DNA of 26,980 nt from Ectocarpus siliculosus (taxonomy: Eukaryota > Sar > Phaeophyceae > Ectocarpales > Ectocarpaceae). The notes beneath the pieces were generated by a model that was given only the letters and a program-made list of their open reading frames with translations, did not search any database and was not told the origin of the DNA. The stretch covers positions 46,851-73,830 of the forward strand of contig FN648038.1 of the NCBI GenBank assembly GCA_000310025.1, read 5' to 3'. Both the position numbers and the translations under genes were made by a program. Positions 745 to 18,839 of the stretch are shown here, piece after piece (the first letter of the stretch is position 1; each line of letters begins with the position of its first letter).

Positions 745-2394
745 GTTTTCATTCAAGAAGTAACTACTCATGGTGCCTTTATTTTCGCTAGACGGCAACG
801 GTGCTGTTTTGGGTTTCTTGACGTAGTCGATATACGGACCGAACTCTTTGTACTGCTCTCTTCGCAATTTAGCGGGATCCAGCACAGGAACTAACGATAC
901 AGCACTAGCGAACAGTTCATTGTCATTCTGGACAATATCAACATCGTTCAACGAATCGGCAGAAATTTCGTAGTCACGAGGGCCAGGTGGATGGTACGGA
1001 CGATCACTCGGCACATTCCTACAAATCGACGCCAGGGCCGGTTTGTGCGATACGGACTCGGACTCAATTTCGCCAAATAAACGAGATAACGCATCGGGTA
1101 CGACGTTTAGTTTTCCCGCTACGTGTTTGACGGTAAAATCATCATTTTGAAGAGCGACAGCCCAACGAGTGAGCATGTTGCTGGTGTCTTGCATATAAAA
1201 AAGATGAGTCAACGCTTGATGATCAGTAATCACCGTAAAGTGTTTCCCAAATAAATACGGTCGCCAATGCGAAATTGCAAGAACCACACCGCAACACTCT
1301 TTCATAGACGCAGAGTAATGACGCTGTCCATGTTTGAATCGATGACTATAATACGCAATTATGTCAAGAGACTCCGGATCAGACTTGGACGGCTGGGCAA
1401 GAAACGCGCCACACCCATGTTCGGATGCATCCACATGAACTACGAATTCCCGATCGAAGTCCGGGAAATGTAAAACGGGCGCTGAAGTTAATGACCGCTT
1501 AAGATGAGCGAACGATGCGTCGTGCGATTTTTTCCAAGCTTTTTCGAAACGCGATTTTGTGGCGTACTCTTTGCGAGTTAACTCCACTAACGGATTGGTT
1601 ATTTCTGCGTAATCCGGTATAAACCGGCGCACAAAATTAACCACCCCGAGTACTGAGCGAAGATCTTTCAGGCAACGAGGTGTAGGAAGGTTTTGGACGG
1701 CTTCAATACGATCCTTCCCGACAGAAATACCTTCAGCCGAAATAATATGTCCCAAATACTCGATGGATTTGGGGCCAAACGAAATCTTCGAAGGTTTCAA
1801 TGTCAGACCTGCTGCTTGGAGAGCTACGAACATGCTCTCTAAAGACTTCATATGATTCTCGAAGGTTGCGGAAAGCACACAGAAATCATCCATGTAAATC
1901 AACAATTCGGGAATTTGGCCTAACGTTTTATGGGCCATCTCAGCAAAAATCCACGGGGCATTACAAACACCAAACGGCATCCGCTTGTAACAGTACTTGC
2001 CAGAGTTGGTGACAAAGGCTGTCCTTTCGACGTGGTCAGGATGAACAGGAATCTGCCAGTACGCTGACTAGACGTCTGCAACGCTGATGAACTTGGCGCT
2101 GCCGACAGAGTCAAGGTTGGACTCCATGTTCGCTAGAGGCCAGGTCTTGCGAATGATGTGCTAGTTGACGGTGCTTCGGAAATCGACGCAAAAACGAGGT
2201 TTACCATCTTTACGCGCGACGAGAGTAACGGGGGAACCCCACTGACTAGGCAGCTCTTTGATGATATCATCGTCAAGCATGTCCTTGACGCACGTTTGGA
2301 TAACGGCTTCAGTGCGAGGGTTAGCGCGGTAGGGACGACGGTTAACCGGCTTCGTGTTGGCGGCATAGGAAACGTGGCTTGAGCAGTCTTGCAT
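703..2394 (-). pseudogene. Reverse transcriptase and RNase H of the outer Ty3/gypsy element, with two in-frame TAG codons
   Basis: The fingers/palm part lies at 2394-2164 (PVTLVARKDGKPRFCVDFR). A TAG follows at 2161-2163 and another at 2068-2070, exactly at the first catalytic motif (VADV, stop, SAYWQI). From 1980 down to 703 the frame is open for 425 codons. There, YMDD (residues 29-32) is the RT active site, and D184, E228, D253 and D296 match the RNase H catalytic set. The enzyme would copy element RNA into DNA and remove the RNA strand. The first catalytic Asp (in VADV) is present, but the two stops would truncate the protein unless suppressed. The ORF ends at 703 because of the frame change near 724. 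Confidence 0.92.
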
Positions 2395-2754
2395 TTACCA
2401 AGCTCTTTACGATTCAGCGAAAAAACGGGACGATATTTGGCACACAGGTCCAAAAAACGAGTTTGCTGTTCCTTAGAGAACGTGGAATTTGTGAACGCTT
2501 TCGACAGCGGTTCTACCAGCTCTGCTTTAGCAGCAGCAATTTCGCTCGCGGTTTTCGGAGACGAAGCAACAGCATGGACGTGAAGCTGTTCCTGTGCTAC
2601 CATAGTAACCGGCGATAAAGTTCCAATCTCCAATCCAACATGTACGGCGAGATACTCAGATGATGGATTCGCAATTTGGACCACTACGGAACCATCAACA
2701 GCACTCCATGTTGAGACGGTACGAGCCACGATTAAACGTTCAAATTCGGGCGGA
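2395..2754 (-). pseudogene. Protease-to-RT linker of the outer element's pol, interrupted by the inner element
   Basis: This minus-strand segment begins at the target duplication (2751-2754), continues the reading frame of the protease ORF on the far side of the inner element, and leads into the RT. It encodes the region up to RKELGKCKTAQ. At about 2360-2395 the sensible reading moves into the frame of the RT ORF, a one-base backward shift. The ORF nominally runs to 2133, but its last 85 or so residues are out of frame with respect to RT homology. The start at 2729 is a GTG that merely opens the ORF; it is not a true start codon. Confidence 0.75.
2751..2754. repeat. Left target-site duplication (cgga) of the inner element
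   Basis: The bases cgga immediately precede the first LTR base (tttaaagg). The same four bases follow the last LTR base (ttaaca) at 16607-16610. Adjacent bases on both sides differ, so the duplication is exactly 4 bp. One copy plus the element is 13,856 bp, and removing this restores the outer frame. Confidence 0.9.
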
Positions 2755-3050
2755 TTTAAAGGAGGGGAAGCCGTGGGCGGTAGCTTGCTCCTAGAGATAG
2801 ATGAAGGTAGGTTCTGTCGTTGACACGCTTGTCCACGATCACGTTGAGATGAGAAAGTTGCTTGTTATTGCTGAGAGACGATCAGCAAGGGTCTGAGGTG
2901 AAGTGGGGATCCAACTTCACCTCAGGGGGTACGCAGACTAGACAAATCCTAAGAAGGTAGGTGTCTGAAGGGTATACCTCCTGGGACCGACCCACATCCT
3001 ATCAACAATAAGATGTACCCTATTTAAGCTAGCAGCCACACTCCTTAACA
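2755..3050 (-). repeat. 3' LTR of the inner element (296 bp)
   Basis: This sequence is repeated at 16311-16606 with only two differences, both transitions (2841 a versus 16397 g; 2955 a versus 16511 g). On the minus strand it begins TGTTAAGG and ends CCTTTAAA, so the 5' end is a normal TG but the 3' end is not the usual CA. A TATA-like TTAAATA lies at 3021-3027 on the minus strand, about 24 bases into the LTR, implying a very short U3. Two hairpins are encoded: 2893-2925 (12-bp perfect stem, 9-base loop) and 2868-2888 (7-bp stem). Confidence 0.95.
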
Positions 3051-4306: not shown

Positions 4307-7006
4307 CTAGGAAGAGATATTGGGAACAGCCGACGGTAAGGAGTCAGTAATGGGAGGAGTGCGATCCCGGGCGTCGCCCAAAGGGCGCGAGCGATGTTTT
4401 TCTAAACACCACGATCCACAGACGGCGTCCAAGGCGGTGGAGTAGAGGTGCGCAGGCAGAGGGAGAACGCGGGGGCCCGGGTCATCCAGAAATCGAACGA
4501 TGTACGAGCCGTCCTGATGAGCACCAATACGTCCTGTCCACCATAATCCGTCGCGGGCCTTGTACCACAGCCGCGCTCCCACTGGAAGGGGCGAAATGCT
4601 GAAGCGACGGAGCCAAGTCGCGTGAAGCACAAGGTCAGCCCCAGGAGGCAAATAGCGTTCGCCACGATTCCGGGCTAGCTCCCGTTGTGCCGCGCGTGTC
4701 CGAGCCACTCGATACGTGCGGTTACCCTGCTTGCTTTGGCAGACCTCTCGAGGCCAGTACAAGAGGATGTGTTGACGGAATTGATCGAGGTCGGACTCCC
4801 GTTCCCAAGAAGGAGTAGTCAGGCCTAGCCAATGCGTCTGGTACAGGACAGCGAGAACGCCGCTACGGCCCCGCACCAATTGGTGTCCCGAAATGTAGTC
4901 GACCTCGAGGCGCCCGACAGGCGCCGACACATCATCTGCGGTGACGTGAAACGGTGGACATTTATCGCCGAAAGAGTGCAGGACATAACGCGAAAGCTCA
5001 GCGGGTAGAGATTGGGGCAGGTCGTCCGTCTCGTATGGATTGCGACAGGGCTTGCAACGAAGGACAGATACGCGACATCGAGCTGCTGGGCCGGAAAGAT
5101 CAGAAGGCAGGTCCAGGTAGAGGAGTTTACGCGCCAACGGGCTTCCATCTGGGGTGGCGTCGGCCGAAGCGGGACCCACCGCAAGAACTTTGTAAGGCCC
5201 CGTCCAGGAAAGCGCGAATTTGGCCTTGAGCACCTGTTGATCCGTGTCCTTCCGCACACCCTGTCGAATTGTTGCAGCCGTGTTGTAGACCCAAGCCCAC
5301 CCGCCAACGGTAAATTGCGGGAGCTTGTGGATGGCGTCCAGCAGGGATGAATTACGGCGTTCGACTCGCGAGATCTTCAGGGCGTTGTACTCACGGACCA
5401 GGTCGTAGGCCCGGCGCTGACGATCGACAGCCAAGTTGCAGTACTCGAGTTGGTCACGGGCTAAGCTTTGATGACCACCTACCGTTGGATGATCGAAGAC
5501 CGAAAGCGGAAGCCGCGGAATGCGTCCGATATGGATCTCGTTCGGCGCCAATCCAGTCGACTGGTTCACGGAATTGTTGTAGGCAAATTCAACGTGCGGG
5601 AGATGTACGTCCCAATCGTTTTGCTGTTCGTTGACGACTACCGCAAGCATCTGAGCCATCGTGTGATTGACGCGTTCCGTGCCGCCGTTGGTTTGCGGGT
5701 GGTAGGAGCTGGTGGTGACTTTCTTGATTTTCATCACCTCGTAGATCGCCATGGAGAGCTTCGAGCAGAAATGCAGTCCGTTGTCCGACAATAACGTAGT
5801 CGGACATCCCCACTTGGTCATGTACTGGTTGACGAAGATGTGAGCCGTCCCTTTCGCCGTAAATTCCGCCGCTGTAACCGCGAACATGTCGGCTCTCCGG
5901 CTGAAACGGTCTGTGAACAACAAAATGTAGGAGTTGCCCTTGGCAGTCACGGGCAGGGGTCCGAAGAAGTCGACGCCGACGACCGTACCAGGCCCCTGTG
6001 GCAATGGCATAGCGATGACGGGCCACCGAGCGGTTTGACGCGAAGTCTTGCGAGCTTGACACACCAAACACGCTCGAAGCCACCAGCGCACGGAACGATC
6101 CAGACCAATCCACCAGTAGAAACGCTCAAGCAGACGTTGTGTACGATGAACCCCGAGATGGAAGGACGCGGCGGTATGGCAGGCATGAAGGGCCCACGGA
6201 CGCATCAGCATGGGCACGTAGACACGGGGCACACCAGTATCCGGTAGACGAGTGGTCCTGCCGCCAGAGCGCCCGATCGGCGATGGCGCCGATTTATGTA
6301 CGAGGAGGGTGACGTTATCATCGGTCGTGTGCAGCCTGGTTTTCGCCGCCAACCCAAGGACATCGTCTAACCGAGGGGAGCGGAGCGGGGTACTAAGGGT
6401 GAGCAAGTCAGAAGGGGGTGGGGAGGGAGAGCCACGAGACAGAAAACGCATAGCCACCACGCATTCGCTCTCCCGCTGTTGTTCCCTAGCCCAGTCCACA
6501 GTGCCGAAGCTCTGAACGCAAGCTCGCAAATGTGAGGGGTCCAAGTCAGTCGGCTCCAACCCAGAGTCAAGCGATCCCACGGAAGAGGCTGTAGAACGAG
6601 GAGCCTCAACGACTGGTGAAGTTGCAGACAGCGGTGTCACCCTAGGAGGAGGCATCGGGAGGGGCGAAGTCCCAGGCGAAACCTGGATAGAGGGCAAAAC
6701 CGAGGATGCAGCGCGCGCCGATGCCGGCGAAGGCACCGGTGGCGCAGAGGCAGTCGACGAAAACGCCAACATTGGCTTCGCAGATGACGGCAGGGGACGC
6801 GTGCCGGTCCGGATGGTCTTGTTTGTCGAGCGGGACCTGCTAGGACGACGGGCAGTGGACGATGCCCGAGGGACGATGGTAGCCCGCGGCTGGCATCCGA
6901 AAGAGGTGGGACAGGTGACGGTGCCTCCAGAAGCAGCGGTGGTCTTGGCCCGAGTTCGTAAAGAAATGAGCGGTCCCCGCTCCGGAAGCGAAGACAGGAC
7001 GTGCAC
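4307..7006 (-). CDS. Integrase region of inner-element pol, with chromodomain-like and Tudor-like tail
   Basis: The 899-codon ORF starts at a GTG (7006), but the frame is open back to a TAG near 7125. It continues the polyprotein rather than starting a gene. Residues 1-250 are Pro/Ser-rich. An H2C2 zinc finger follows (H277, H283, C313, C316), then the catalytic core with D346, D408 and E444, giving the D,D(35)E spacing of retroviral-type integrases. A GPY module (WTGPYKVL) is at 601-608. Residues 697-750 resemble a chromodomain (EVDYISGHQ ... WERESDL ... ILLYW). Residues 805-872 resemble a Tudor/SH3-like fold (LWYKARDGLWWTGRI ... YIVRFLDDPGP). Such tails guide insertion by reading chromatin. 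The ORF ends at a TAG at 4307-4309, so TAG appears to be a normal stop here. It overlaps the RT ORF by 370 bp in another frame. Confidence 0.93.
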   Translation of the reverse strand: MHVLSSLPERGPLISLRTRAKTTAASGGTVTCPTSFGCQPRATIVPRASSTARRPSRSRSTNKTIRTGTRPLPSSAKPMLAFSSTASAPPVPSPASARAASSVLPSIQVSPGTSPLPMPPPRVTPLSATSPVVEAPRSTASSVGSLDSGLEPTDLDPSHLRACVQSFGTVDWAREQQRESECVVAMRFLSRGSPSPPPSDLLTLSTPLRSPRLDDVLGLAAKTRLHTTDDNVTLLVHKSAPSPIGRSGGRTTRLPDTGVPRVYVPMLMRPWALHACHTAASFHLGVHRTQRLLERFYWWIGLDRSVRWWLRACLVCQARKTSRQTARWPVIAMPLPQGPGTVVGVDFFGPLPVTAKGNSYILLFTDRFSRRADMFAVTAAEFTAKGTAHIFVNQYMTKWGCPTTLLSDNGLHFCSKLSMAIYEVMKIKKVTTSSYHPQTNGGTERVNHTMAQMLAVVVNEQQNDWDVHLPHVEFAYNNSVNQSTGLAPNEIHIGRIPRLPLSVFDHPTVGGHQSLARDQLEYCNLAVDRQRRAYDLVREYNALKISRVERRNSSLLDAIHKLPQFTVGGWAWVYNTAATIRQGVRKDTDQQVLKAKFALSWTGPYKVLAVGPASADATPDGSPLARKLLYLDLPSDLSGPAARCRVSVLRCKPCRNPYETDDLPQSLPAELSRYVLHSFGDKCPPFHVTADDVSAPVGRLEVDYISGHQLVRGRSGVLAVLYQTHWLGLTTPSWERESDLDQFRQHILLYWPREVCQSKQGNRTYRVARTRAAQRELARNRGERYLPPGADLVLHATWLRRFSISPLPVGARLWYKARDGLWWTGRIGAHQDGSYIVRFLDDPGPRVLPLPAHLYSTALDAVCGSWCLEKHRSRPLGDARDRTPPITDSLPSAVPNISS

Positions 7007-9585
7007 ATATCTATCGCCAGAGACGCGGCCGGAGACATTCCGCGGGACGTAGCCGGAGCCAAAGAGGAAACAGGCACCGGAGACGCGGAAACATGTGAGA
7101 CCACGAAGACTCCCGAAGACCTCCTAAAATCTTGATAATCAATCGGTGAGTTCGATCGAACATCCAGCCGGCGCGGGTGATGACGGCGAAAATCCCCAAA
7201 ATCGGATGGCTGTAGCGCTGGGGGTGAAAAGACTCCCGCCGAGCAGGGAGGGCGGAGCCCACCCAAACCGACCTCCGGCGTAGACGACGAGTGATAGTTG
7301 AGTCCACAAGCCCGAATGAGGAAGACACCAGCGTGATCGACACCATCAATGCAATCGGGGCCGGTTGTGTCCGTGTCTCGTGCTGGTAAAGGCAGCCGCG
7401 AAAGGAAATCCGCGTTGCCGTTTGCCGAACCTTTCCGATATTTCAGGGTGTAGGTGAAGTTGGACAGGAATTCGAGCCATCGTTGTACCCTGGCGTTGTG
7501 TTCTCCAACCTTGCCAATGCTCTCTAAGGCTTTGTGATCTGAATAGATGATGAACTTGGTTGACCACAAATAGCCCCGAAGGCGCTTAATGGCCCAAACA
7601 ATGCCACCAGCTTCCAGATCCAGAACGGTCCAGTTCCGCTCCGCCGGAAGAGTAGCGCGGCTGATGTACACAATGGGTCTTACCGAGCCATCGAGTTGTT
7701 CCTGTTCCAGGGAGGCTCCAAAGCCGTCGATGCACGCGTCGGAGCACAAACGGAGAGGGCGGCTGTTGTCCTCGACCGCAGCCCAATCCGGGAAGACCAA
7801 AATCGGGGGTCGCGCGAGTTCGCTCAACAACGTTTTGACAACCTTGACCATGCCCGGGGTGTACTTGAAGGGGACGCCTTGTTTGAGAAGAGAGTTGAGA
7901 GGCTGCACCTTGGTGGCGAGATTCTGAAGGAATTTCCGGTAGTAGCTGAGGCCACCGAGAAGGCTCCTAAGCTGCTTAACATTCGTCGGCGGCGGCATGT
8001 GCGTGAGCGCACGAACCTTAACGCCATCAGGGCTAACACCGGCCGGGGAGATGGTGTGACCGAGGAAATTGGCGTGGGTGGCGCCGACACGAGCCTTCCC
8101 CGGAGACAGCTTGAGGTTGTACTGGCGCAGCCGTTTGAAAAACTCTATCATGTTGAGCACGTGTCCCAGAGGTTCCTCATCGCAACAGATAACATCATCC
8201 AGGTATGCAAGCACACGCTCCAGACCGTGCACCACTCTGTTGATGACCTTGACGAACCAAGACGGGCTCGCGTTGGCTCCTTGCGGCATCCGAAGCCATT
8301 CGAACAACTGCGTGGGAGTGCAAAAGGCGGTGAGCGGGACAGTGTCTTCGTCACAAACGATCTGGTGGAAGGCCGAGTTGAGGTCGAAGATGGAGAACAC
8401 TTTCCCGGTGTACAGAGAATCCAAGATACCGTCCACCCGAGGGAGAGGTTGTCCATCCAAGTCCACCAGGGCGTTGAGACGCTTGTAGTTGACGGTGATT
8501 CGAACCGACCCGTCCTTCTTGGGGATGACGACCAGAGGAGAAGCCCAGGGAGAAGTGGAATGCTGGATGAGCCCTGCCGCCAAATACTGGTCCAACACGG
8601 CATCCACTTTAATCTGCATTAACGGGTTAATACGATACGGGCGTGATGCGACGGGCTTCTTCCCGGCGGGGACAGAAAGAGTGAATGGCATGACGGTGCA
8701 GGAACCAAAATCGGTTTTCGAAGTAGAGAACACGTCGGAATACTCAACAAGGGCGTCGGCCAAGCGATCAATGGCCTCCGGCGTCCATCCCGGGTTGTGT
8801 AGATCGAAAGCGATGTCATGCATATGTGCGGGCAGCCTAGCCCACAAGAGCAGGAAGCTGGAGCGCTGGGCCTCGGAGAAACGGTCAAGTAGTTCTTGTG
8901 GAGGCGGCTTCGGAGGAGGCGGGGCGGAGGCTGGGTCCGGAGAGCGGCGAGTCCCTGACTTGGGGCCAACGGCGTTGACCCGATGTGGTGATGTGGAGGA
9001 CGTGGGGCCGGTAGGAATCGAAGATGGCGCCGTCTTCAGGGTTTCTACCGGCACTCGTAATAGCGGCGCAGCGGACACTCCAAGAACGTCTCCCGGCTCC
9101 AATTCGGCACAACCTGCAAGGGGAATACGCTGGAGACCATTGGTAACAAATGCATCGGGGGACGAAAGCGCAGCCACTTCGGGTCGGAACGATACGAGAT
9201 ATTCGCCGATCAGCGCAGGCATGCCAGAAGAACGGACGAGGTCCACCTCAACCAGAGCAGGCTCCGGTCCCAAGGAAATGCCCGAGCTCCCTGCATATTT
9301 TAGGTGAAACGAAGAGGCAGGAGCGTCGTCGTGTGTAGCGTAAACACAAGCGCCAGCGGCGAAACGTGGAGAGAGCGTGAGCTCGCCCATAACCCGGCCC
9401 GTCGGTCCAGGGTGGGGGAGGGTGGTGAACACGCGAGAGTTGAACCGCATCCAGCTATCACGACCCAAAAGCACGGCGTGCCCCATGGCGGCATCTGGAA
9501 CAACGCAGGCCCAGACCGCCAAAGAAGCGGTAGCTCGAGCTCCATGAAGAAAATTAACGGTGAGACGAACTGACCGAGTGGTCAC
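6637..9585 (-). CDS. Protease C-terminal half, reverse transcriptase and RNase H of inner-element pol
   Basis: This 982-codon ORF opens at a GTG in the middle of the protease domain. Residues 1-50 hold its second half, with the conserved AVLLGRDSW. RT spans about 318-510, with D401 (FDLNSAF) and YLDD (461-464). RNase H spans about 595-735, with D616, E658, D683 and D726 all present. Residues 180-230 form a proline-rich spacer. After about residue 735 the protein is low complexity. Past residue 850 it overlaps the integrase ORF and probably no longer represents the true reading. Relative to the NADAR/protease ORF this frame is one base ahead. Relative to the integrase ORF a one-base backward shift is needed. 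The protein would be cut from a polyprotein by its own protease. Confidence 0.93.
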   Translation of the reverse strand: MTTRSVRLTVNFLHGARATASLAVWACVVPDAAMGHAVLLGRDSWMRFNSRVFTTLPHPGPTGRVMGELTLSPRFAAGACVYATHDDAPASSFHLKYAGSSGISLGPEPALVEVDLVRSSGMPALIGEYLVSFRPEVAALSSPDAFVTNGLQRIPLAGCAELEPGDVLGVSAAPLLRVPVETLKTAPSSIPTGPTSSTSPHRVNAVGPKSGTRRSPDPASAPPPPKPPPQELLDRFSEAQRSSFLLLWARLPAHMHDIAFDLHNPGWTPEAIDRLADALVEYSDVFSTSKTDFGSCTVMPFTLSVPAGKKPVASRPYRINPLMQIKVDAVLDQYLAAGLIQHSTSPWASPLVVIPKKDGSVRITVNYKRLNALVDLDGQPLPRVDGILDSLYTGKVFSIFDLNSAFHQIVCDEDTVPLTAFCTPTQLFEWLRMPQGANASPSWFVKVINRVVHGLERVLAYLDDVICCDEEPLGHVLNMIEFFKRLRQYNLKLSPGKARVGATHANFLGHTISPAGVSPDGVKVRALTHMPPPTNVKQLRSLLGGLSYYRKFLQNLATKVQPLNSLLKQGVPFKYTPGMVKVVKTLLSELARPPILVFPDWAAVEDNSRPLRLCSDACIDGFGASLEQEQLDGSVRPIVYISRATLPAERNWTVLDLEAGGIVWAIKRLRGYLWSTKFIIYSDHKALESIGKVGEHNARVQRWLEFLSNFTYTLKYRKGSANGNADFLSRLPLPARDTDTTGPDCIDGVDHAGVFLIRACGLNYHSSSTPEVGLGGLRPPCSAGVFSPPALQPSDFGDFRRHHPRRLDVRSNSPIDYQDFRRSSGVFVVSHVSASPVPVSSLAPATSRGMSPAASLAIDMCTSCLRFRSGDRSFLYELGPRPPLLLEAPSPVPPLSDASRGLPSSLGHRPLPVVLAGPARQTRPSGPARVPCRHLRSQCWRFRRLPLRHRCLRRHRRALHPRFCPLSRFRLGLRPSRCLLLG

Positions 9586-9598
9586 AAGGGCGGGTCCA

Positions 9599-11386
9599 TC
9601 ACCAAACCCACCCCAACGACGAGAGGGCGAAACACGAGCTGCCAGCTGTTAAGGCTCCAGCGGCGATCATGGCGGTGACCACGGAGTCGGACACAAAAGA
9701 CGCAGGAGACCCAGAGTCCAGCAGTGCCACTCGCGCGAGTTGAGAAGTGGCTGTAGGTCCTCCATGCAGCAGAACCCGGGTGGTGTAAGAGTCCGAGTCC
9801 AACAGGAGCGTGCCGCCGACCAGATCGGGCCCGTGTTCCAGAAGAGGAGGTTGGTCTGCACAAGCGGAGGTCGAGGCCACCAGATGAACACCAGGAGCAT
9901 GGTCCCCCGGAGCGTCCAAACGGAGACAAGCTGGGTCTTCACCCCGGTCCTCCCGTGACGACGAACCGGCCGCGGTAGCAACCTCGTGGATGCGTCTACG
10001 GCCATGGGGAAGAGGCTGCGAAATGGGGGGGGTGGGGGAAGTGGAGGCGGGGAGAGCTTCGCCAGACAGGGGATGATCCCGCAAAAGGCGCCGAACTTCC
10101 ATCAAAGCTTTTCCCAACAAGTTTTTACCGCTAGACGCCCACTTGGATGAAATGCTAGCCTCCGGAAAGCATGCAGACATGCCGATACCCCAAACACGAT
10201 CAAAGGGGCTGGCTTCCGCAAGGAGGCGGGTACCCGTCTCCAGTAAATGTTGTTTCATGTCGTGGTTCTGAGCGAATTTGGCATACGACCCCGTAAGCAC
10301 GATCTCTTCTCGACGACGCTCCCATTCGGCATAGTCAAAAGGACGTACGTTACGACCTAAGTATTTGTGTGTCTTAGGATCGGTTGCAGCCATGATTTTG
10401 TCATACGACGTCATATCCCCAAACAACTTCGCTTTTTCAGACATCATAAATTGCTCACCACATGAAAAACGTACCCCCAGTACGTCAAAAGCCGAGGGAG
10501 TCCATTGCGAGAACACAGACGGAGGTTTCCAGAAGAGGAGGACGTCATCCGAAGCGTACTCGCATTTGTCATCAAACGGCGGAGCCGGTGCAGGGTGGAG
10601 GGGCAAAGAGCGGGCACCAGGCACGGGCGGGGGTGGGCCAAGCGGACGGGTCCTCATCTCCGACGGGGAGGACCCAGAAAGCGAGGGAGGAGCGGGCGAA
10701 GTCGTTCCGGTCCATGGTCCGGAGGGCGGCCTACGAGCGGCGGCTCCGGCGAGGTCAATGTTAGCAGAGGCCATGCGGCTATGAGAGACCCGTTCGTTAG
10801 GAGAAGTCTTTCCTGCGGCAGACGGATGTGTATGAATGGACGCAGGGCGCTCTGGACTACTCCCCCGTGACAAAGGAGCCGAACCTTCCACAGAATGGTG
10901 GGCACTACCATCCGATCCCGATGGCAGTGGTGCAGTCAGCACGTTGTGGGCAGCAGAGGAAGACGCATTCGTATCAGGTGCTGTCACACGGGGGCAGCGG
11001 ACGGTCGAAGACAACGAAAGCTGCGAAAGAGAAGGAGAATCGACGGGATCCCCGGCGAATGTAGAAGAAGGCTCGTGTGCTATCCGAGAAGAGGCCCGGC
11101 TGACAACACCAAAAGAGTCTTGGCGAACAGTAGTAGACGAGGTTCTTGTTCCTTCTGTAACCCGAGACGACGAGGTGAGCAGGGGTGAACCGCTCGACAT
11201 CTTACCTCCCTGTCGCCCACACCACAAAGGTTGTGCCGGAGTGGGTTTGTCATGTCCAATACCAGCAGACGATGAGGCGGGCGACGAGGAGGCGGGCCGA
11301 GAAACTAAACGTGATTTGGGGACATCGGGAGTATCCAAAGAAGTAGGCTGTACACGAACATCTTGGGAGACTCCAAAAGGGTGCAC
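9599..11386 (-). CDS. NADAR domain plus protease N-terminal half of inner-element pol
   Basis: The 595-codon ORF starts at a GTG but is in the same frame as gag. Only the TGA at 11435-11437 and 16 further codons separate them. Residues 1-280 are Ser/Pro-rich and disordered-looking. Residues 280-440 form a full NADAR domain: FW at 285-286, FSQW at 292-295, EQF at 311-313, KF at 370-371, DRVWGIGM at 396-403 and NLLGKALMEVR at 422-432. NADAR proteins include hydrolases that remove ADP-ribose from guanine. A linker leads to the protease, whose active-site loop is LLDSGSPASF (DSG at 557-559). The frame fails at residue 595 inside the protease, where one extra base in a G-rich run (near 9612-9622) explains the switch to the next ORF. 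Placement between gag and protease is unusual for Ty3/gypsy. Confidence 0.9.
   Translation of the reverse strand: MHPFGVSQDVRVQPTSLDTPDVPKSRLVSRPASSSPASSSAGIGHDKPTPAQPLWCGRQGGKMSSGSPLLTSSSRVTEGTRTSSTTVRQDSFGVVSRASSRIAHEPSSTFAGDPVDSPSLSQLSLSSTVRCPRVTAPDTNASSSAAHNVLTAPLPSGSDGSAHHSVEGSAPLSRGSSPERPASIHTHPSAAGKTSPNERVSHSRMASANIDLAGAAARRPPSGPWTGTTSPAPPSLSGSSPSEMRTRPLGPPPPVPGARSLPLHPAPAPPFDDKCEYASDDVLLFWKPPSVFSQWTPSAFDVLGVRFSCGEQFMMSEKAKLFGDMTSYDKIMAATDPKTHKYLGRNVRPFDYAEWERRREEIVLTGSYAKFAQNHDMKQHLLETGTRLLAEASPFDRVWGIGMSACFPEASISSKWASSGKNLLGKALMEVRRLLRDHPLSGEALPASTSPTPPISQPLPHGRRRIHEVATAAGSSSREDRGEDPACLRLDAPGDHAPGVHLVASTSACADQPPLLEHGPDLVGGTLLLDSDSYTTRVLLHGGPTATSQLARVALLDSGSPASFVSDSVVTAMIAAGALTAGSSCFALSSLGWVW
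10067..10549 (-). other. NADAR domain (ADP-ribose/guanine glycohydrolase fold) inside pol
   Basis: The segment matches the NADAR/YbiA-like pattern along about 160 residues: aromatic FW start, FSQW, the E of GEQFMMSEKAKLFGD, the charged WERRREEIV helix, KFAQN, HLLETG, EASPFDRVWGIGM and NLLGKALMEVR. The spacing is normal, there is no internal stop, and no obvious key residue is lost. This implies purifying selection until recently. The family assignment is from memory of its conserved motifs. The role in the element is inference. Confidence 0.9.
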
Positions 11387-11434: not shown

Positions 11435-11437
11435 TCA
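11435..11437 (-). promoter_or_regulatory. In-frame UGA between gag and pol, candidate readthrough site
   Basis: Gag ends AAG AAA TGA CTT GCC, and the same frame is then open through the NADAR/protease ORF. A UGA followed by C is among the leakiest stop contexts in eukaryotes. Low-level readthrough would give a gag-pol fusion without frameshifting. I see no obvious strong downstream RNA structure. Confidence 0.5.
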
Positions 11438-14400
11438 TTTCTTACCCTTCCAGCCCCTCTTAGCCGAAGTGGAAGTCTCCGACGAGGATTCTGTGTGTGA
11501 GGACTGTTTCATGTCCGATGTGTCAAATGAGCGGCGGGCTCGTCCGGAGGAGTGATTACGGGGTGGGTTGCGTCCTGTAGGGCGTCTATACGAGGTCATG
11601 CGCTTTTTCCACCGACTCCAAAGTGCGGGATCTTTTTCCATGCAGCGCTTGATGTCATTGTTAAGCAGGCCTGTGGCGTTAATGAAACCACGAGTACAGG
11701 ATTTGAAGGAGTGATCTTCGCCTAAGCAGTTGAGGCACTTGCCCTTGTACAGCCGAAGCGCGTTGCGGCGGTCTTCAGCTGAGACCAAGGGGGTGAACAA
11801 TGGCGGATGATTCTTGGTTAGAGCCATCTCACTAGCGACATTGTACACCTCTTGAAAGTGTCCTTGCAACGGCCAGTCGCTGTAGTGCAACAGAAAAGGG
11901 TCCCGATCATCATTAGGCAGAGGGTCAACACTCATCACCGCAGCCGAAGAACCTCGGCTCCACGAAGGGGTCACCGACGAATGGAACGCCGAAGAAGCTA
12001 CAGCACGCGAAACAGCAGACGAACTCCTAGCATTCGTGGAAGACACCGAAAAAAAATCGTCCCCATGTACCGCCGGCGTGTGCGCGAATGCACGCTTGTC
12101 CAACACATCCCACATATCGTCCAAGCACGAAGCATGTCGCCCAAAAGGGGCTTCCATGGAGAGCTGCTCATCCTTGTACACCTGTCCAGACACTACGGGA
12201 AACTGCTTCAACATGGAGTCTCGAACAGCTATCTGCACTTGCGCATCCGAAGGCTTGAACGCGTGGTGAGAAACCATGACGGTCATGGCCAGAGCCTTAT
12301 AGCGACGAATGTATTCTCCGTAAGTCTCGCCGGTGGACACGCCAAAACTACGAAGACGATCAATCCCCGAGCTCTTGTCTTGAGTGTCCCAGGCAGCCGC
12401 CAATTTCTGGATGAAGAACGCGTACGTCGAGGGCCCGGCCGGTTCCTTGCGCAGATGGTTTTCTACCTGTTGGAAAGTGGCATCAAGAAATTCCAGCGTG
12501 GCACGGTTGGTGGTTTGACCGTCAACGACAGCAGCACGAACACGTTTGCGCAACAACGGAAGCCATCCTGCGACCCAGGTGGAGGAAGTGAAAGTCTGCT
12601 TGCGTTTGACGTCGCTTTTGTTGAGGATCTCGGTGACCACGCCCTTGCAGCTAGACGCGAAACGAGCAAATTCATCGGGATCAGAACCAAGGGGCAAGCG
12701 TGTGACACTATCAAGTTGTTCCGGCTTCAGTTTGTCCATCTTGTCTTGAATGCGAATGGTGTCGGCCTCCGCTGCAGCGGCGTCCGCGGCGTCCAACGCC
12801 TCCTGCCGCGCTCTCGCCCCCGTGGAAGACAAAGGCAAGCTAGCATCATCCGGAGGCAACGGCGATGTCGCGTGGGCCGGTGACGCGATGACGTGTCCGG
12901 TCGCCAAGCAAGGATCGAGCAGGATAGACGGACGCGGGAGGGGGGGGGGCACCACCAAAGGCTGTTGTGGCAGAGCTGAGGCGGTCGACGCTGATGGCAC
13001 CACCAAAGGCTGTTGCGGCAGAGCTGGGGCGGTCGGCGCTGATGACGATGACACTGCCGTGGCCCTGGCAGCCGCCTCTTCATGAACCTCGTGCCCTGGA
13101 CGAACTCCCGAGGAACTCGAAGCGTGGTCTTGCAGTGGTGCCAAATGCGCTCGTGACGAAAAAGGTGGGGCAGAAAATGGTATGCTAGGGGCGTTCGAGG
13201 GCACAGAAGGTGGTACATTCGAGTCGGCAGCAGCATCCACAACTTGGCCAGGCGTTTGCGCGCGCAGGAGAGTGAGCACTTGTTCCAACAGCATTTCAGT
13301 ACGGGAAGCCGAAGTCGAGGCGTGTGATGCAGCATTGTGCGGTGGACCAACCCGTTCGTCCAAAGGCAAGGAAGATGTGGGCGGATCTACCACGGTGTGT
13401 GTAGGGGCATGGCTTTTAACCGCGGCGGAATGTTCACGAAGTTGCATGTTGGCAAGTTTGAACGCCAAGGTAGACACGGGCGGCGGTCCTACATCAGCGG
13501 GGGGGCGCAAAACCCGTGGCGAAGAACAGAGAGAACCATCTTCTGAGGCATTCTTGCGTTCCCCCAACAGCCCAGAACTACGAAAATCACACCGATCATA
13601 CTGCACTTGCCTGCGACCCCGACCTGACTTCCGTCGCCCTTTGCCCCCTCGACCGCTGTCCGAGCTGGTCGCCCTGCTGTTGCCCCCGCTCCTCGTCGGG
13701 CTCCGGCTGCGGCTACGCCTACGCGAAGGCGTGTTGCTCCCGCGACGGTCGCTGCTCCGGCTGCGACCACGCCGAGACGAAGGCGCGTGACGTTGCTGTC
13801 GGTCGGTGCTCCGGCTCCGGCTCCGGCTCCGGCTCTCGCGGTGTCGACGCTTGGACGAAGATCTGGGAGGTTGGGTTCCCGCGTACCCCCGCCCGCCATC
13901 TTCGACACCCGGCCCCCGCGAAGTGCGCTCGGCCGTCCCGCTCTTGTCCGTGGGGGCTTGATCACCCCAACGGCTCCTCCGGCTGGTGGAGGCAGGAGCC
14001 GCCGACAGACTGTAGTCCTTGGTCCCTCCGGAAGCATGGACACGACTTGCAGAATCCTGCTGAGGGAGCTGCAGAGCATGCTGAAAATCTTCGTTAGTTG
14101 CAGTACGAGCTAGCGGCAACCGAATTCCCCCATTGTGCACCACCACCGCTGTTCCCTGGGGACCCTCGGTGAAAGCAGCCCTACGGAGAGCAGACACTAA
14201 CCGAAACACACTCTGTCGTAAGGACGATTCAAGCTGGTCGAGGAATGGACTCGATACAAGATGTGCAAAACCAAGGTCTGTATAAGAATCGGGACAGCGG
14301 TCACGCACAATTTGTTGGAGGACAGCCCACGCAAAAAGGGCACTAGTTCGATCAGCATCATGGAAGGTGATCACGTGTGTGGGCGTGGAAAGGGGACGGG

Positions 14401-15970
14401 ACAGGAACGCTGTGTCTTCCGGGTGAAACCTGTACTCCTCGGCTTCGTCGTCCGACGCGCCGTCGGCATCCCCGGCCGGCCTACCCAGCGTCACAGAAAA
14501 CTGGGGAGCAGCAGCCACTTCCGGAGCCGCCTGGGGCGTGGGAGGGGGCACGACACGACGATGGGCGGGTCGCGAAAGCAAAGTTGAAGCTTGCGGCCGG
14601 TGCTCGAGGTCCTCCAGCCGTGATCGGAGCGCCCCCTGCTTCGCCCTAGCAGCCCGGACATACTCCTCGCGCGCCGCTAGTTCCGCTTTCTTCTGCGCAG
14701 CAGCCCGAGCAGCCTCGCGCTCCTCCTCCTGCTTCCTCGCAGCCTCCGCCAGAGCAGCCTGACGCTCCTCCTCCTGCTTCCTCGCAGCTTCCGCCAGAGC
14801 AGCCTCACGCTCCTTCGCCTGCTTCCTCGCAGCCTCCGCCAGAGCAGCCTGACGCTCCTCCTCCTGCTTCCTCGCATCATCCGCCAGAGCAGCCTCACGT
14901 TCCTCCAGCAGCTTCCGCTCTTCCGCCGCCGCTACCTTGCTAGCCGGGATCGAGAAAGGGCGAGCGCAAATGGGGGAACCAGGAGACAAACGAGCTGCCC
15001 TGACCACGTCGCGCAGGGAGATCCGTCCAGCGGTGTACGCCTGTTCCAGGTCCGCCGGATTCGCCGTGGCGATGTTGTACCTCAGGTCATCAGCTGTGGA
15101 CGCGCCTGGAGTGGACTCGCTCTCGTCGCCCGTCCCGGCCCCTGCAATCAGCTCCGCGGTGGACGGCTCGCCCTCGGCCTCGTAATCGAGGATTTCCTCA
15201 TTGCCGTCCATCATTTCCACATAGCCGCTGGACATGGTGTTCTCTTTTTTCAAAAAGACAGGGCCAGAGGAAGGGCAGCTACTATCGATTTTTACAAGTG
15301 CAGAACGGCCAGCAACAGCAGATGTGTCACCCCCAACCGCTGTTGCGATAGCAGAACCGATTGCAGCGGAAACAGTAAAGCGGGGCGTAATCGCGGTAGA
15401 AGCAAGCCGAGGTCCATGCGAAAAACGGAGATACCCACAGGATAGCATACGCCCGGTGATAAAAGCTTGATGCACACGAGGTTGAAGCGGATCCAACCAA
15501 GCAGAAAAGGCGTCCAAAAGCACACCAGGCCACGCATACACAGCAGTGGAAGCTAGCACAAAAGGACCGGTATTAAATGGAGACACGAGATTGTCCGACC
15601 AAAACACACACAGAGCAGCACGGCGTTCCTCCGCAACGGGTGCCGAAGTGCGAGCAAAGACCGCTGTGGGTTTGCGCTGTTGAAAGGTTTCCAATTCAAA
15701 TGCCTTGAGGGTGAATGATGCTCCAAAAACAATTTCCATGTGATTGCGAAAAATGGAGGGAAGGCTGGTGGGGCGGCTGACACCCAATTTGTGTGCACAC
15801 AATGCTCTCCACGTCGAAACAAGCGGAGTCAAATCGGAGACCACCACAGGGAAATCCGCGGACATCGGCCGGTACGCCGGCATGAATGCAGTAGAGGTGG
15901 TAGCGGACGCGGGAAGCATGCTATCATCTCGAGTCCCACTACACAAAGGCAACAACTCCGGTTGCTGCAT
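11435..15970 (-). CDS. Gag polyprotein of the inner element (long, multi-domain)
   Basis: The open frame begins at a GTG at 15988. The first ATG is at 15970, and a later ATG at 15235 (MSSGYVEMMDG) is an alternative start. Numbering from 15988: residues 1-250 are compact, not low complexity, and unrecognised. Residues 352-450 are an Ala/Glu/Lys/Arg coiled coil of 15-residue repeats. Residues 535-645 form an unrecognised globular module. Residues 708-793 are an RS domain rich in SRSRS and RRRSRSRS. Residues 1080-1310 are capsid-like. Residues 1418-1431 are a CCHC knuckle with perfect C-x2-C-x4-H-x4-C spacing. The last 60 residues are basic. Gag coats the element RNA and forms the particle. At about 1,500 residues it is several times longer than typical Ty3/gypsy gag. 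A UGA ends it in the pol frame. Confidence 0.9.
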   Translation of the reverse strand: MQQPELLPLCSGTRDDSMLPASATTSTAFMPAYRPMSADFPVVVSDLTPLVSTWRALCAHKLGVSRPTSLPSIFRNHMEIVFGASFTLKAFELETFQQRKPTAVFARTSAPVAEERRAALCVFWSDNLVSPFNTGPFVLASTAVYAWPGVLLDAFSAWLDPLQPRVHQAFITGRMLSCGYLRFSHGPRLASTAITPRFTVSAAIGSAIATAVGGDTSAVAGRSALVKIDSSCPSSGPVFLKKENTMSSGYVEMMDGNEEILDYEAEGEPSTAELIAGAGTGDESESTPGASTADDLRYNIATANPADLEQAYTAGRISLRDVVRAARLSPGSPICARPFSIPASKVAAAEERKLLEEREAALADDARKQEEERQAALAEAARKQAKEREAALAEAARKQEEERQAALAEAARKQEEEREAARAAAQKKAELAAREEYVRAARAKQGALRSRLEDLEHRPQASTLLSRPAHRRVVPPPTPQAAPEVAAAPQFSVTLGRPAGDADGASDDEAEEYRFHPEDTAFLSRPLSTPTHVITFHDADRTSALFAWAVLQQIVRDRCPDSYTDLGFAHLVSSPFLDQLESSLRQSVFRLVSALRRAAFTEGPQGTAVVVHNGGIRLPLARTATNEDFQHALQLPQQDSASRVHASGGTKDYSLSAAPASTSRRSRWGDQAPTDKSGTAERTSRGPGVEDGGRGYAGTQPPRSSSKRRHRESRSRSRSRSTDRQQRHAPSSRRGRSRSSDRRGSNTPSRRRSRSRSPTRSGGNSRATSSDSGRGGKGRRKSGRGRRQVQYDRCDFRSSGLLGERKNASEDGSLCSSPRVLRPPADVGPPPVSTLAFKLANMQLREHSAAVKSHAPTHTVVDPPTSSLPLDERVGPPHNAASHASTSASRTEMLLEQVLTLLRAQTPGQVVDAAADSNVPPSVPSNAPSIPFSAPPFSSRAHLAPLQDHASSSSGVRPGHEVHEEAAARATAVSSSSAPTAPALPQQPLVVPSASTASALPQQPLVVPPPLPRPSILLDPCLATGHVIASPAHATSPLPPDDASLPLSSTGARARQEALDAADAAAAEADTIRIQDKMDKLKPEQLDSVTRLPLGSDPDEFARFASSCKGVVTEILNKSDVKRKQTFTSSTWVAGWLPLLRKRVRAAVVDGQTTNRATLEFLDATFQQVENHLRKEPAGPSTYAFFIQKLAAAWDTQDKSSGIDRLRSFGVSTGETYGEYIRRYKALAMTVMVSHHAFKPSDAQVQIAVRDSMLKQFPVVSGQVYKDEQLSMEAPFGRHASCLDDMWDVLDKRAFAHTPAVHGDDFFSVSSTNARSSSAVSRAVASSAFHSSVTPSWSRGSSAAVMSVDPLPNDDRDPFLLHYSDWPLQGHFQEVYNVASEMALTKNHPPLFTPLVSAEDRRNALRLYKGKCLNCLGEDHSFKSCTRGFINATGLLNNDIKRCMEKDPALWSRWKKRMTSYRRPTGRNPPRNHSSGRARRSFDTSDMKQSSHTESSSETSTSAKRGWKGKK
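12948..13043. repeat. 48-bp tandem duplication within gag
   Basis: Two 48-bp units (12948-12995 and 12996-13043), each beginning ggcaccaccaaaggctgttg, encode duplicated ALPQQPLVVP segments in the Pro-rich linker of gag. They differ at only a few bases, so the duplication is recent. The number is a multiple of three, and the frame is kept. Confidence 0.9.
14720..14899. repeat. 45-bp tandem repeats encoding the gag coiled coil
   Basis: About four units of 45 bp encode variants of EAALAEAARKQEEER. Units differ by a few substitutions (for example ADDARKQ, KQAKE) and all keep the frame. The 15-residue period with alternating Ala and charged residues predicts a long helix. Confidence 0.92.
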
Positions 15971-15988
15971 GCAAAGCGTGTCCGCCAC

Positions 15989-16310: not shown

Positions 16311-16606
16311 TTTAAAGGAGGGGAAGCCGTGGGCGGTAGCTTGCTCCTAGAGATAGATGAAGGTAGGTTCTGTCGTTGACACGCTTGTCCACGATCGCGT
16401 TGAGATGAGAAAGTTGCTTGTTATTGCTGAGAGACGATCAGCAAGGGTCTGAGGTGAAGTGGGGATCCAACTTCACCTCAGGGGGTACGCAGACTAGACA
16501 AATCCTAAGAGGGTAGGTGTCTGAAGGGTATACCTCCTGGGACCGACCCACATCCTATCAACAATAAGATGTACCCTATTTAAGCTAGCAGCCACACTCC
16601 TTAACA
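16311..16606 (-). repeat. 5' LTR of the inner element (296 bp)
   Basis: This is the partner of 2755-3050 at a constant offset of 13,556 bp, with 294 of 296 positions identical and no indel. It would drive transcription on the minus strand from a TATA-like element at 16577-16583. The two hairpins recur at 16449-16481 and 16424-16444. Confidence 0.95.
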
Positions 16607-16610
16607 CGGA
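16607..16610. repeat. Right target-site duplication (cgga) of the inner element
   Basis: This is the partner of the cgga at 2751-2754. It lies directly after the right LTR, inside the protease-RT coding region of the outer element. Confidence 0.9.
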
Positions 16611-17674
16611 ACAGTATCTAACGAAAGTTCATCTGCCGACAAAATACGCGGCTCGACTACTACGGCGGTTTCAACGGACGGTATGCATTCAGTGAATGCT
16701 TTTACGATCATCGCATGACGAGGGCAAATATTATAACGGTGACGTAATTTGACTGAGTGTTCTTCCGCATTTCTGTGAACGGCTGCAACACGGGGGGACG
16801 GCGATGGATCAACACCGTGTTGAGAATGTTTACGATGAATAGCGGGGACAATGGTGTCACTACACTCAAAAGTCAAACGTTCATTTTTCCAGTCAAGTAC
16901 TGCCGCAAACCGGGTCATTGCCTCGTTGTCGAGGAGTATTTGATCAGGACCGAGCGATGGTACGACCAACGCATCGATTCGGCGGGACACGTCTCCGAAC
17001 CGAACAACGAACGAAATAAATCCTAAAACTTTGACGGGTGCTCCATTTGCGGCACTAAGTGTTAGGGACGGAGACGGTATGGGCTCTAAATGAGCAAACG
17101 ATAACGATGGGTGCTGTTTCAAAAACGACAGTGAAACGCACGTGACGTCACTTGCAGTATCAATGGTGATTTGAGGGAGAAATTGGCCATCGATATGTCC
17201 AGGAGCGCGAACGCGTTTGGATGAAAAAGACAGAGACAAAGACGGTTTTTTCCGCGCCAGCGCTGAGCTGTACCACGAAACACGTTTTTTAAATCCCTCG
17301 GAATTCCTCTTCCTCTTCTTACGCTCCGATACATTCTTCGGTACGGCAACAATCCTGTCGGCCCTTGTTTTATTGGCACTCTTACGAAAACGCGATGCCT
17401 CAAGGGACGCTCTATCAACCACGTCTAAATCGGCTGCGACAATTGAACGCTCTAACCTTCTATGTGATTGTTCTACGACAGGGGACGCATGCGCCTTATT
17501 TACAAGTCGTTTGGTACTCTTCGAACTCGATCTATCACTCCGAGCACTAGACGATATGGACGAACGCGCAAGTGACGCAACACGGTCAAAAGATCTTTTC
17601 ACGCCCTTACTGCTAATTGCTACGGCAACCGCAGATTTCTTCCCAAGTATTGTGGGCACAACACCTGGGCACCC
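16607..17674 (-). pseudogene. Protease region of the outer element's pol, cut by the inner element
   Basis: This frame continues directly from the outer gag after a TAG. Residues are numbered from the GTG at 17659. The first 150 are basic and Ser-rich. A retropepsin-like domain follows: ITIDTASDVTCVS with the catalytic D167, a hydrophobic flap region near 200-220, and ILLDNEAM near 241-248 in the place of the usual ILG-D. The active-site triad is Asp-Thr-Ala rather than Asp-Thr/Ser-Gly, which may impair activity. The ORF ends at a stop supplied by the inner LTR (TGTTAA, 16601-16606 on the plus strand), not by the outer gene itself. Confidence 0.82.
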
Positions 17675-17677
17675 CTA
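17675..17677 (-). promoter_or_regulatory. In-frame UAG between outer gag and pol, candidate readthrough site
   Basis: Gag ends GAC CCC GAA TAG GGG TGC CCA, and the same frame continues into protease. A UAG followed by GG at a gag-pol border in the same frame resembles the arrangement used by gammaretroviruses. Because this copy has three other TAGs elsewhere, decay is a competing explanation. Confidence 0.4.
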
Positions 17678-18689
17678 TTCGGGGTCCGGCCAATCGTCCT
17701 TCCTCTTCGGGCGACGATTTTTCCTGGACCGCTTGGACGCAGGACGACGTTGACGCTCCTCTTCCTCTGCAAGCCGCACCCAGCAACGCTCGATGGGATG
17801 GGTCTTGTGGGAACGGCAGGTGGGGTGGGTGCAGGGGTCAAAGGAAGGACGACGCTGACCTCCTCCCCCACCCGAACCTCGACCACGAGCGGAGGGCGTT
17901 CCACGGCGAGTTGTCGACGGACGCGGGGCAGGTGACTTCTTAAAAGTCACCGTTTGAGTAGGCCTCGCCTGAAACAAAGCCGTGGGGCGAGCGGTGGCAG
18001 ACGGTACGGAGTGAGTTGCCGAAACAGTTAAAACGGGTTCCGACTCCTCCAGACGACGCGCTCGGTCTATGGCTTCTTTGAGCGACTTTACGGGAGTGTA
18101 CCTCCGTTGAAGTTTACGAACTTCAGGCGTCAACCCATTTTGCCACAGAGCCACTGTCATGCAGTTCCAAGCAGTACGACTACCATCACGACCGACGGCA
18201 GCTTGGAGCCGTGCCATGACAGTACGGAAACGAAGAGCATACGAGGAAACAGATTCCTGCGGCCCTTGGACGAACGTTGCAAGATTGTGTGCCTCCTCTT
18301 CAACGGAATTTGCGGGAAGGAGGGAATCAAGCAACACGAAACACATGGCATCCCACGTGGTCGGAGAGGGAAACGACCCTTTTTCCTCCGGTTCCGTGAA
18401 CGTGCTTGCCTTAGAACAGTCTATCTGTCCAGACAAGATCTGCTGAATCAGAGTCAACACCTCTCCTGTTCCCACAAGGGCAACGTGTTTCAGTGCAACT
18501 CCATCGGCAAACGACGAATCCGGGTTGATGGCTGCAGCTTTCAACCCAACCACCGTACGAAAATGGTTCAAAATTTCGATGACATTTTCGGTGCCGTCTC
18601 CTGTGAGTTTAGGAACGCTGCGGAGATCAGCCGCGGATATGGAAACGGTAGCTGCTTGTAGAAACGTACGAACGGGGGGTTCAGTTGCT

Positions 18690-18839
18690 ACAGCAGTAGG
18701 CGCCACCTGTGACATTGAAGTAACAGGCGGTGCTACGACGGACGATTGCGCATTCGTAGGTGCAACCTGTGCTGTTGAAGTAACAGGTGACGCTACGACG
18801 GACGATTGCGCACTAGCAGGTGCAACCTGTGATGTTGAA
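18690..18839. repeat. 60-bp tandem repeat in outer gag
   Basis: Units at 18720-18779 and 18780-18839 match at most positions (shared tacgacggacgattgcgca), and a half unit precedes them at 18690-18719. They encode repeated QVAPxxAQSSVVAxPVTS segments. The period is divisible by three, so the frame is unaffected. Confidence 0.92.

What the first reader, a model, noticed from the sequence alone, without database searches (positions are those of the whole stretch)
10067..10549. A NADAR domain captured in a Ty3/gypsy retrotransposon, between gag and protease
The domain has all the main NADAR motifs and no internal stop, and lies in the gag/pol frame. NADAR enzymes can remove ADP-ribose from guanine bases, and cells and phages use nucleic-acid ADP-ribosylation in defence. 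A retroelement encoding the eraser in its polyprotein could protect its RNA or cDNA from such marking, or process NAD-derived signals inside the particle. I do not know of a described Ty3/gypsy element with this layout, but cannot rule out earlier reports.
Basis: partly seen in the sequence, partly recalled or inferred. Interest (0 to 1): 0.9.

Follow-up and report, generated by a model that had tools for sequence, protein, structure and literature searches.

The report
ADP-ribose-clipping enzyme inside algal retrotransposon
A mobile DNA element of a brown alga carries, near the start of its replication polyprotein, a well-preserved copy of an enzyme that elsewhere strips ADP-ribose off DNA bases; the arrangement was published in 2025, but what the element uses it for is still unknown and can now be tested.

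Summary

What I add: the gag stop before NADAR-Pol is an in-frame UGA followed by C in 36 of 36 alignable copies of five sub-families, so NADAR is probably made by stop readthrough. NADAR is under purifying selection (pN/pS 0.20; RT 0.31; adjacent linker 0.73). The ADP-ribose-contacting residues are nearly invariant. Among sampled sequences, its nearest kin outside retroelements is the alga's own NADAR gene (clade support 96/86), not bacteria, as the paper had suggested. Best explanation: a working N-glycosyl hydrolase carried with Pol that removes ADP-ribose from element nucleic acid or related substrates. Substrate and writer are unproven; no DarT match was found.

The parts
16311..16606 (-). 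5' LTR, 296 nt, TGTTAAGG...CCTTTAAA
   Evidence: near-identical copies elsewhere in the genome (40 listed, 40 of 193 candidates scored)
2755..3050 (-). 3' LTR, 296 nt, 2 differences from the 5' LTR
16607..16610 (-). target-site duplication TCCG, upstream copy
   Evidence: one frame is open across the joined empty site
2751..2754 (-). target-site duplication TCCG, downstream copy
11435..15988 (-). gag ORF (1517 aa by the tool's start), no Pfam match at E 0.1, ends in the UGA
11696..11737 (-). CCHC zinc knuckle of gag (CLNCLGEDHSFKSC)
   Evidence: motif recognised from recall
11435..11437 (-). UGA between gag and NADAR-Pol, same frame, followed by C
   Evidence: UGA+C in 36 of 36 alignable copies of 41, five sub-families
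10079..10534 (-). NADAR domain (PF08719), first recognisable domain of Pol
9695..9727 (-). aspartic protease motif (ALLDSGSPASF); the second half of the protease lies in another frame in this copy
   Evidence: motif recognised from recall
8050..8526 (-). reverse transcriptase (PF00078)
   Evidence: E 2.3e-25
7456..7770 (-). RNase H (PF17917)
   Evidence: E 3.5e-28
6044..6214 (-). integrase zinc-binding domain (PF17921)
   Evidence: E 1.7e-13
5696..5995 (-). integrase core (PF00665), just below the Pfam cut-off
   Evidence: 29.7 bits against 32.6
4760..4906 (-). chromodomain-like stretch behind integrase, weak
   Evidence: 13.0 bits against cut-off 25.1; pLDDT low there
4385..4600 (-). Tudor-like five-strand barrel at the Pol C terminus, suggestive only

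Best explanation
The domain is a working YbiA-type NADAR N-glycosyl hydrolase that a brown-algal Ty3/gypsy lineage has kept, from what looks like one acquisition, as the first recognisable domain of Pol. Shown from sequence: the fixed place in the lineage, the intact predicted fold and ADP-ribose pocket, purifying selection comparable to that on reverse transcriptase, the in-frame UGA-C stop between gag and NADAR-Pol in five sub-families, and a clade shared with the host's own NADAR gene. Inferred: ribosomes read through the UGA at low rate, so NADAR enters the particle with protease, RT and integrase at Pol stoichiometry and is cut out by the protease. Inferred with less certainty: there it takes ADP-ribose off the element's RNA or cDNA (N-glycosidic adducts, guanine being the known substrate of the nearest solved relative) or off linked substrates placed by host ADP-ribosyltransferases, and so keeps the template copyable.
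Against: No biochemistry. No DarT match (the control search rang in 1 of 14 genomes) and no Tpt1/KptA match; PARP-type catalytic exons were found (4 exon-sized hits) but say nothing of nucleic acid targets. 3 of 24 copies in the RT-ranked set have a changed key residue or a stop in the active site, and 3 have a stop in the domain. 3 of the 27 were dropped because their NADAR is split, truncated or not listed, so that ratio is mildly favoured. The 40 fetched copies were chosen by NADAR score, and the pN/pS rests on 18 of them. In sub-family B NADAR (0.41) is not tighter than RT (0.32), and at saturated distances NADAR is 0.36 and RT 0.31. The 36 junctions are near-copies within sub-families (96-100% identity), so they amount to about five independent observations. 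No RNA structure beyond z -1.4 was found in the 100 nt 3' of the stop. NCBIfam places the domain in the riboflavin N-glycosidase model.
Confidence: 0.45

Rival explanations
1. The domain acts on soluble NAD- or ADP-ribose-derived signals of the host rather than on nucleic acid, damping a defence or stress signal.
For: A survey of viral proteomes proposes this for many viral NADARs (PMC9503650, passages). ADP-ribose pocket conserved.
Against: [quoted passage not shown] I know of no such signal in brown algae (recall, not searched).
Confidence: 0.2
2. The domain serves RNA handling, such as recognition or processing of the element RNA, with catalysis secondary; this is close to the reading of Dinatale et al.
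For: NADAR domains are needed in nematode SNA-3 for spliced-leader trans-splicing, and mutating N-glycosidase residues impairs it (PMC9303266, passages). Dinatale et al. propose processing of the RNA intermediates.
Against: Catalytic and ADP-ribose contacts are kept here, which binding alone would not need.
Confidence: 0.2
3. It is a metabolic N-glycosidase (riboflavin intermediates) carried along and useful to the host cell or the element under stress.
For: TIGR02464 riboflavin biosynthesis intermediates N-glycosidase 145.1 bits against 73.7. An annotated Ectocarpus NADAR protein, Esi0017_0056, improved stress tolerance in Arabidopsis (PMC7922944, title, passages and section 2.1).
Against: A Pol domain made in low amount is a poor place for a metabolic enzyme (inference); the name of a model is not a tested function.
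Confidence: 0.08
4. Passenger domain without function, still intact only because copies are young.
For: LTRs differ at 2 of 296 sites, so this copy is young. Three of 24 RT-ranked copies have lost a key residue.
Against: NADAR pN/pS 0.20 against linker 0.73 in the same copies; the same pocket residues in sub-families 32-45% apart in protein.
Confidence: 0.05

Closest known systems
NADAR-carrying Gypsy lineage of Ectocarpus (Gypsy-12_Ec32 and relatives; Dinatale et al. 2025, PMC12477816)
   Same: [quoted passage not shown] the paper also reports a C-terminal chromodomain in Gypsy-12_Ec32.
   Different: Its sequence was not held, so identity was not measured. The words readthrough, stop codon and synonymous do not occur in its main text, and purifying occurs once on another matter; it suggests horizontal transfer, with almost only bacterial blastp hits, as the origin.
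Phytophthora nicotianae NADAR (PDB 8BAU)
   Different: Stand-alone protein; Tyr84 is Phe in all 41 element copies and Asp86 is variable; 35% identity.
Brown-algal stand-alone NADAR gene (own genome L057; P0148, P0149, P0152, P0154)
   Same: Element and host rows form one side of a branch, 96/86 with bacterial and phage-contig rows on the other.
   Different: The host gene matches in four separate blocks, so introns lie inside the domain (no transcript evidence), and it has an N-terminal Cys/His-rich stretch; no retroelement domain in P0148.
NADAR in ORF1 of Tx1 LINEs of Crassostrea gigas
   Same: NADAR in a retrotransposon protein, per PMC12477816.
   Different: Non-LTR element, divergent domain, in an animal; not examined here.
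Tca2 of Candida albicans (PMC2194720)
   Same: [quoted passage not shown]
   Different: Potential 3' pseudoknot there; no marked structure found here, pseudoknots not modelled. In Tca2 the flanking sequence alone did not direct readthrough in yeast.

Membership tests
NADAR / YbiA superfamily (PF08719) | profile match over the curated cut-off | tested here: met
   156.4 bits against 35.1, profile 2-163 of 163
NADAR / YbiA superfamily (PF08719) | YbiA fold | tested here: met
   [not shown]
NADAR / YbiA superfamily (PF08719) | YbiA-subfamily catalytic Glu (E125 of 8BAU) plus E43 and K50 | tested here: met
   41 of 41 copies, chosen by NADAR score; 22 of 24 in the RT-ranked set
NADAR / YbiA superfamily (PF08719) | hydrolysis of guanine-linked ADP-ribose | not testable with these tools
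   needs purified protein
DarT1-linked NADAR antitoxin (BC4488 type) | Asp instead of the YbiA Glu | tested here: not met
   Glu in 41 of 41 at the E125 position
DarT1-linked NADAR antitoxin (BC4488 type) | DarT toxin partner | tested here: not met
   no PF14487 match in the genome at E 0.001, six frames without splicing, so an exon-split gene could be missed
Ty3/gypsy LTR retrotransposon | LTR pair and target-site duplication | tested here: met
   296-nt LTRs, 2 differences, TCCG
Ty3/gypsy LTR retrotransposon | gag, then protease-RT-RNase H-integrase in that order | tested here: met
   RT, RNase H and integrase zinc domain over cut-off, integrase core 29.7 against 32.6 bits; knuckle and protease by motif only
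Ty3/gypsy LTR retrotransposon | place in an RT phylogeny of LTR elements | not tested
   no RT tree with reference elements was built; Dinatale et al. place their NADAR families in Gypsy
[quoted passage not shown]
Published NADAR Gypsy lineage of Ectocarpus | C-terminal chromodomain behind integrase | tested here: inconclusive
   Chromo 13.0 bits against 25.1; model low in confidence there, while a Tudor-like barrel follows
Published NADAR Gypsy lineage of Ectocarpus | sequence identity to Gypsy-12_Ec32 | not testable with these tools
   Repbase is not held and no look-ups in supplements are allowed
gag-pol stop-codon readthrough | conserved in-frame stop between gag and pol | tested here: met
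   UGA+C in 36 of 36 alignable junctions of 41 copies, five sub-families
gag-pol stop-codon readthrough | stimulating RNA structure 3' of the stop | tested here: inconclusive
   z from 0.42 to -1.39 in five exemplars, pseudoknots not modelled
gag-pol stop-codon readthrough | measured readthrough product | not testable with these tools
   needs a reporter or ribosome profiling

The most novel reading that the evidence does not exclude
A brown-algal retrotransposon lineage took the NADAR gene of its own host, placed it behind a leaky UGA so that it is packaged with Pol, and has kept it as a counter-defence that cleans ADP-ribose off its template: a eukaryotic retroelement engaged in an ADP-ribosylation arms race, with a host gene of the same clade on the other side or co-opted back from an element.
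Probability: 0.25. Interest if true: 0.85.

Novelty: already known. Interest (0 to 1): 0.5.

Why it matters
Besides these Gypsy elements the only retrotransposon NADAR that I met in the papers read is in oyster Tx1 LINEs (PMC12477816), and I know of no proof that eukaryotes use nucleic-acid ADP-ribosylation against mobile DNA (recall). The published report left the role open. The selection test, the intact pocket and the UGA-C junction make the domain a functional part of the element and not debris. The kinship with the host gene changes the proposed origin. Both give direct tests: an enzyme assay, and a search for the ADP-ribosyltransferase that would write the mark in brown algae.

Tried and rejected
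Direct capture from bacteria, as suggested in PMC12477816 from blastp: the tree joins element and brown-algal host NADARs to the exclusion of the other rows (93/92 against 26 bacterial or unnamed rows; 96/86 with 17 phage-contig rows added, bootstrap not fully settled). Rows were retrieved by similarity to the element, and I chose 55 rows for the careful tree after a quick tree of 98, leaving out near-duplicates, the partial Pylaiella protein, and P0157 and P0160, which are unnamed but fall among the elements and P0157 of which carries the protease motif. Of the viral loci 18 of 80 were tried and L079 was dropped for a stop. Few other eukaryotes are in, and the oomycete protein is not. The direction between host and element is open: the element row P0009 groups with the host genes (86/75, long branch), and element monophyly without the host is not rejected (AU p 0.33).

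Congruence of NADAR and RT: with seven representatives, one of them a degenerate RT (L020), r was 0.33, p 0.15; with five own-genome sub-families and L013 in its place, r 0.68, 5 of 120 permutations as high. Nearest NADAR in the same RT group: 26 of 30, 30 of 30 with the L013 and L020 groups joined, which the shared junction type of L013, L024 and L041 supports.

IQ-TREE codon models ran but no omega was printed, so only NG86-type pN/pS is used; pairs are not independent. In one search gag tails of sub-families B and C have no synonymous differences, so the gag figure rests on A and D. RNA structure as readthrough stimulator: none found. Tpt1/KptA: no match; Macro: one exon-sized hit. Foldseek searches in 'pdb' and 'viral' never ran; only the pdb_via second look did.

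Chromodomain: below cut-off and no solved sequence relative of the integrase C terminus.

Literature: six searches bear on whether the layout was in print: NADAR with retrotransposon (104 papers, 30 listed), the NADAR/DUF1768/YbiA set (16), Esi0017_0056 (1), NADAR with brown algae (65, 10 listed), NADAR domain with reverse transcriptase (6), DUF1768 with transposable (0). Only PMC12477816 was seen to describe NADAR in an LTR element; most others were judged by title and abstract start. Two with many 'nadar' hits proved to be an author's name.

Full report
What is there. The window is a nest of retroelements. On the minus strand lies an element between 296-nt LTRs at 16311-16606 and 2755-3050, which differ at 2 sites and are flanked by TCCG. 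Joined without the insert, one flanking frame is open across the site: the element sits inside another element whose gag (17675-19123, PF03732, E 1e-5) and RT/RNase H (703-1980) are on the same strand. The LTR has near-identical copies elsewhere (40 listed, 40 of 193 candidates scored).

The domain. Behind gag comes one UGA (11435-11437), and in the same frame an ORF with a full-length NADAR domain at 10079-10534 (E 1e-45). A protease motif follows at 9695-9727, then RT, RNase H and integrase. In this copy the second half of the protease and RT lie in another frame than gag, NADAR and the integrase ORF. Other copies have open frames of 2,000-2,580 aa with NADAR. So the copy in the window is damaged and the lineage is not.

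Source. The genome has 189 Mb in 492 contigs. Nearest named proteins are from Ectocarpus species, and the host NADAR gene is nearest to that of Ectocarpus sp. 13 AM-2016.

More than one copy. NADAR family and protein searches each scored 150 of 230-266 candidates. Of 99 scored RTs of this lineage (99 of 639 candidates), 88 have a NADAR hit upstream on the same strand within 6 kb, 76 of them at 1,389-1,506 nt. Eleven have none listed; one lies near a contig start. In the protein database, 24 of the 120 listed RT relatives (of 707) also carry PF08719 by my count, 12 named Ectocarpus sp. CCAP 1310/34 and 12 unnamed; many of the other 96 are fragments, so their lack of NADAR says little.

Selection. 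In 18 copies of four sub-families, pooled pN/pS is 0.20 for NADAR, 0.31 for RT (14 of the 18, three sub-families), 0.40 for the gag tail and 0.73 for the linker between the gag stop and NADAR. By sub-family NADAR is 0.14, 0.41, 0.07 and 0.12, RT 0.20, 0.32 and 0.50, the linker 0.67-1.25. Over 30 copies, pairs under dS 0.1 give 0.22 for NADAR (81 pairs) and 0.28 for RT (72 pairs); saturated pairs give 0.36 and 0.31. In the RT-ranked set the ratio is 0.28 (30 synonymous, 30 nonsynonymous, 3 stop variants). The domain is therefore maintained in transposing lineages, and its immediate neighbour is not held to the same degree.

Expression. In all 36 alignable junctions of 41 copies, in five sub-families, the gag stop is UGA followed by C, while the next bases are CTT or CAT, CAG, CTC, CAC and CTC. 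Copies within a sub-family are near-identical there, so this is about five observations. First methionines after the stop lie at unlike places in five exemplars and are absent from the first 300 residues in that of sub-family C. I infer stop-codon readthrough, so NADAR is made as part of Gag-NADAR-Pol. No stimulating structure was found. That UGA-C is a weak terminator is recalled, not from a call.

Origin. The own genome holds a stand-alone NADAR gene in which P0149 matches four separate blocks on C24. Its orthologues and the element domains form one side of a branch against bacterial or unnamed rows (93/92) and against these and phage-contig rows (96/86). Dinatale et al. suggested horizontal transfer, having met almost only bacterial blastp hits. 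The tree supports an exchange between host and element, direction open: the element domains are uninterrupted and the host gene is not, as capture of a spliced transcript would give, but domestication of an element domain followed by intron gain is not excluded. An annotated Ectocarpus NADAR protein, Esi0017_0056, is described as having two predicted introns (PMC7922944, section 2.1); I could not test whether it is this gene.

What it does. A hydrolase with an intact ADP-ribose pocket, carried with Pol, most plausibly acts on ADP-ribosylated element nucleic acid or linked adducts. The 8BAU protein does so on guanine in vitro. No DarT or Tpt1 match was found in the genome; PARP-type exons were. 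These searches ignore splicing and can miss exon-split genes. Rivals are soluble ADP-ribose signals, an RNA-handling role as in SNA-3, and a riboflavin N-glycosidase role.

Known or new. The layout is published (PMC12477816, September 2025; abstract, passages and section 5 read), including that NADAR is in all families of one Gypsy lineage, with a suggested role in processing RNA intermediates. Words for a readthrough junction or synonymous sites are absent from its main text. Its supplements, which hold an alignment of the domain, were not read. New here, as far as those readings go, are the UGA-C junction, the selection test against the linker, the residue-level comparison with 8BAU and the host-gene kinship.

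Noticed in passing
window 703-2750 and 16607-19123, minus strand: The NADAR element is inserted in another Ty3/gypsy-like element (gag PF03732 at 17675-19123, RT/RNase H at 703-1980); one joined frame is open across the empty site.
   Followed up: yes
window 21611-24340, plus strand: ORFs of what looks like a non-LTR retrotransposon with RT (PF00078, E 1.1e-21) on the other strand.
   Followed up: no
[not shown]
   Followed up: partly
window 14688-14930, minus strand: 45-nt tandem repeat inside gag encoding a charged, coiled-coil-like repeat by eye.
   Followed up: no
L057 (G000:C24:2124900-2127300): Host NADAR gene in four blocks with apparent introns inside the domain and an N-terminal Cys/His-rich stretch.
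   Followed up: yes
L058 and L059: Two copies whose NADAR has an internal stretch that no longer matches in frame although the long frame stays open (C89 copy: 2346 aa), so some long frames hold a scrambled NADAR.
   Followed up: partly
L060, L061, L062: Diverged NADAR-like stretches (about 40% to the host gene), with stops or frame changes, possibly an older NADAR-bearing lineage.
   Followed up: partly
G000:C3:3913787-3914242 and C489:435177-435536: NADAR hits inside reported open frames of 10,887 and 6,365 aa, far longer than any Pol here; unexplained.
   Followed up: no
P0014, P0016-P0019, P0021, P0024: Database proteins joining NADAR to a Macro domain (P0014), to C-terminal parts that look like sigma factors by eye (P0016-P0019), or to PF10021 plus PF03747 (P0021, P0024).
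   Followed up: no
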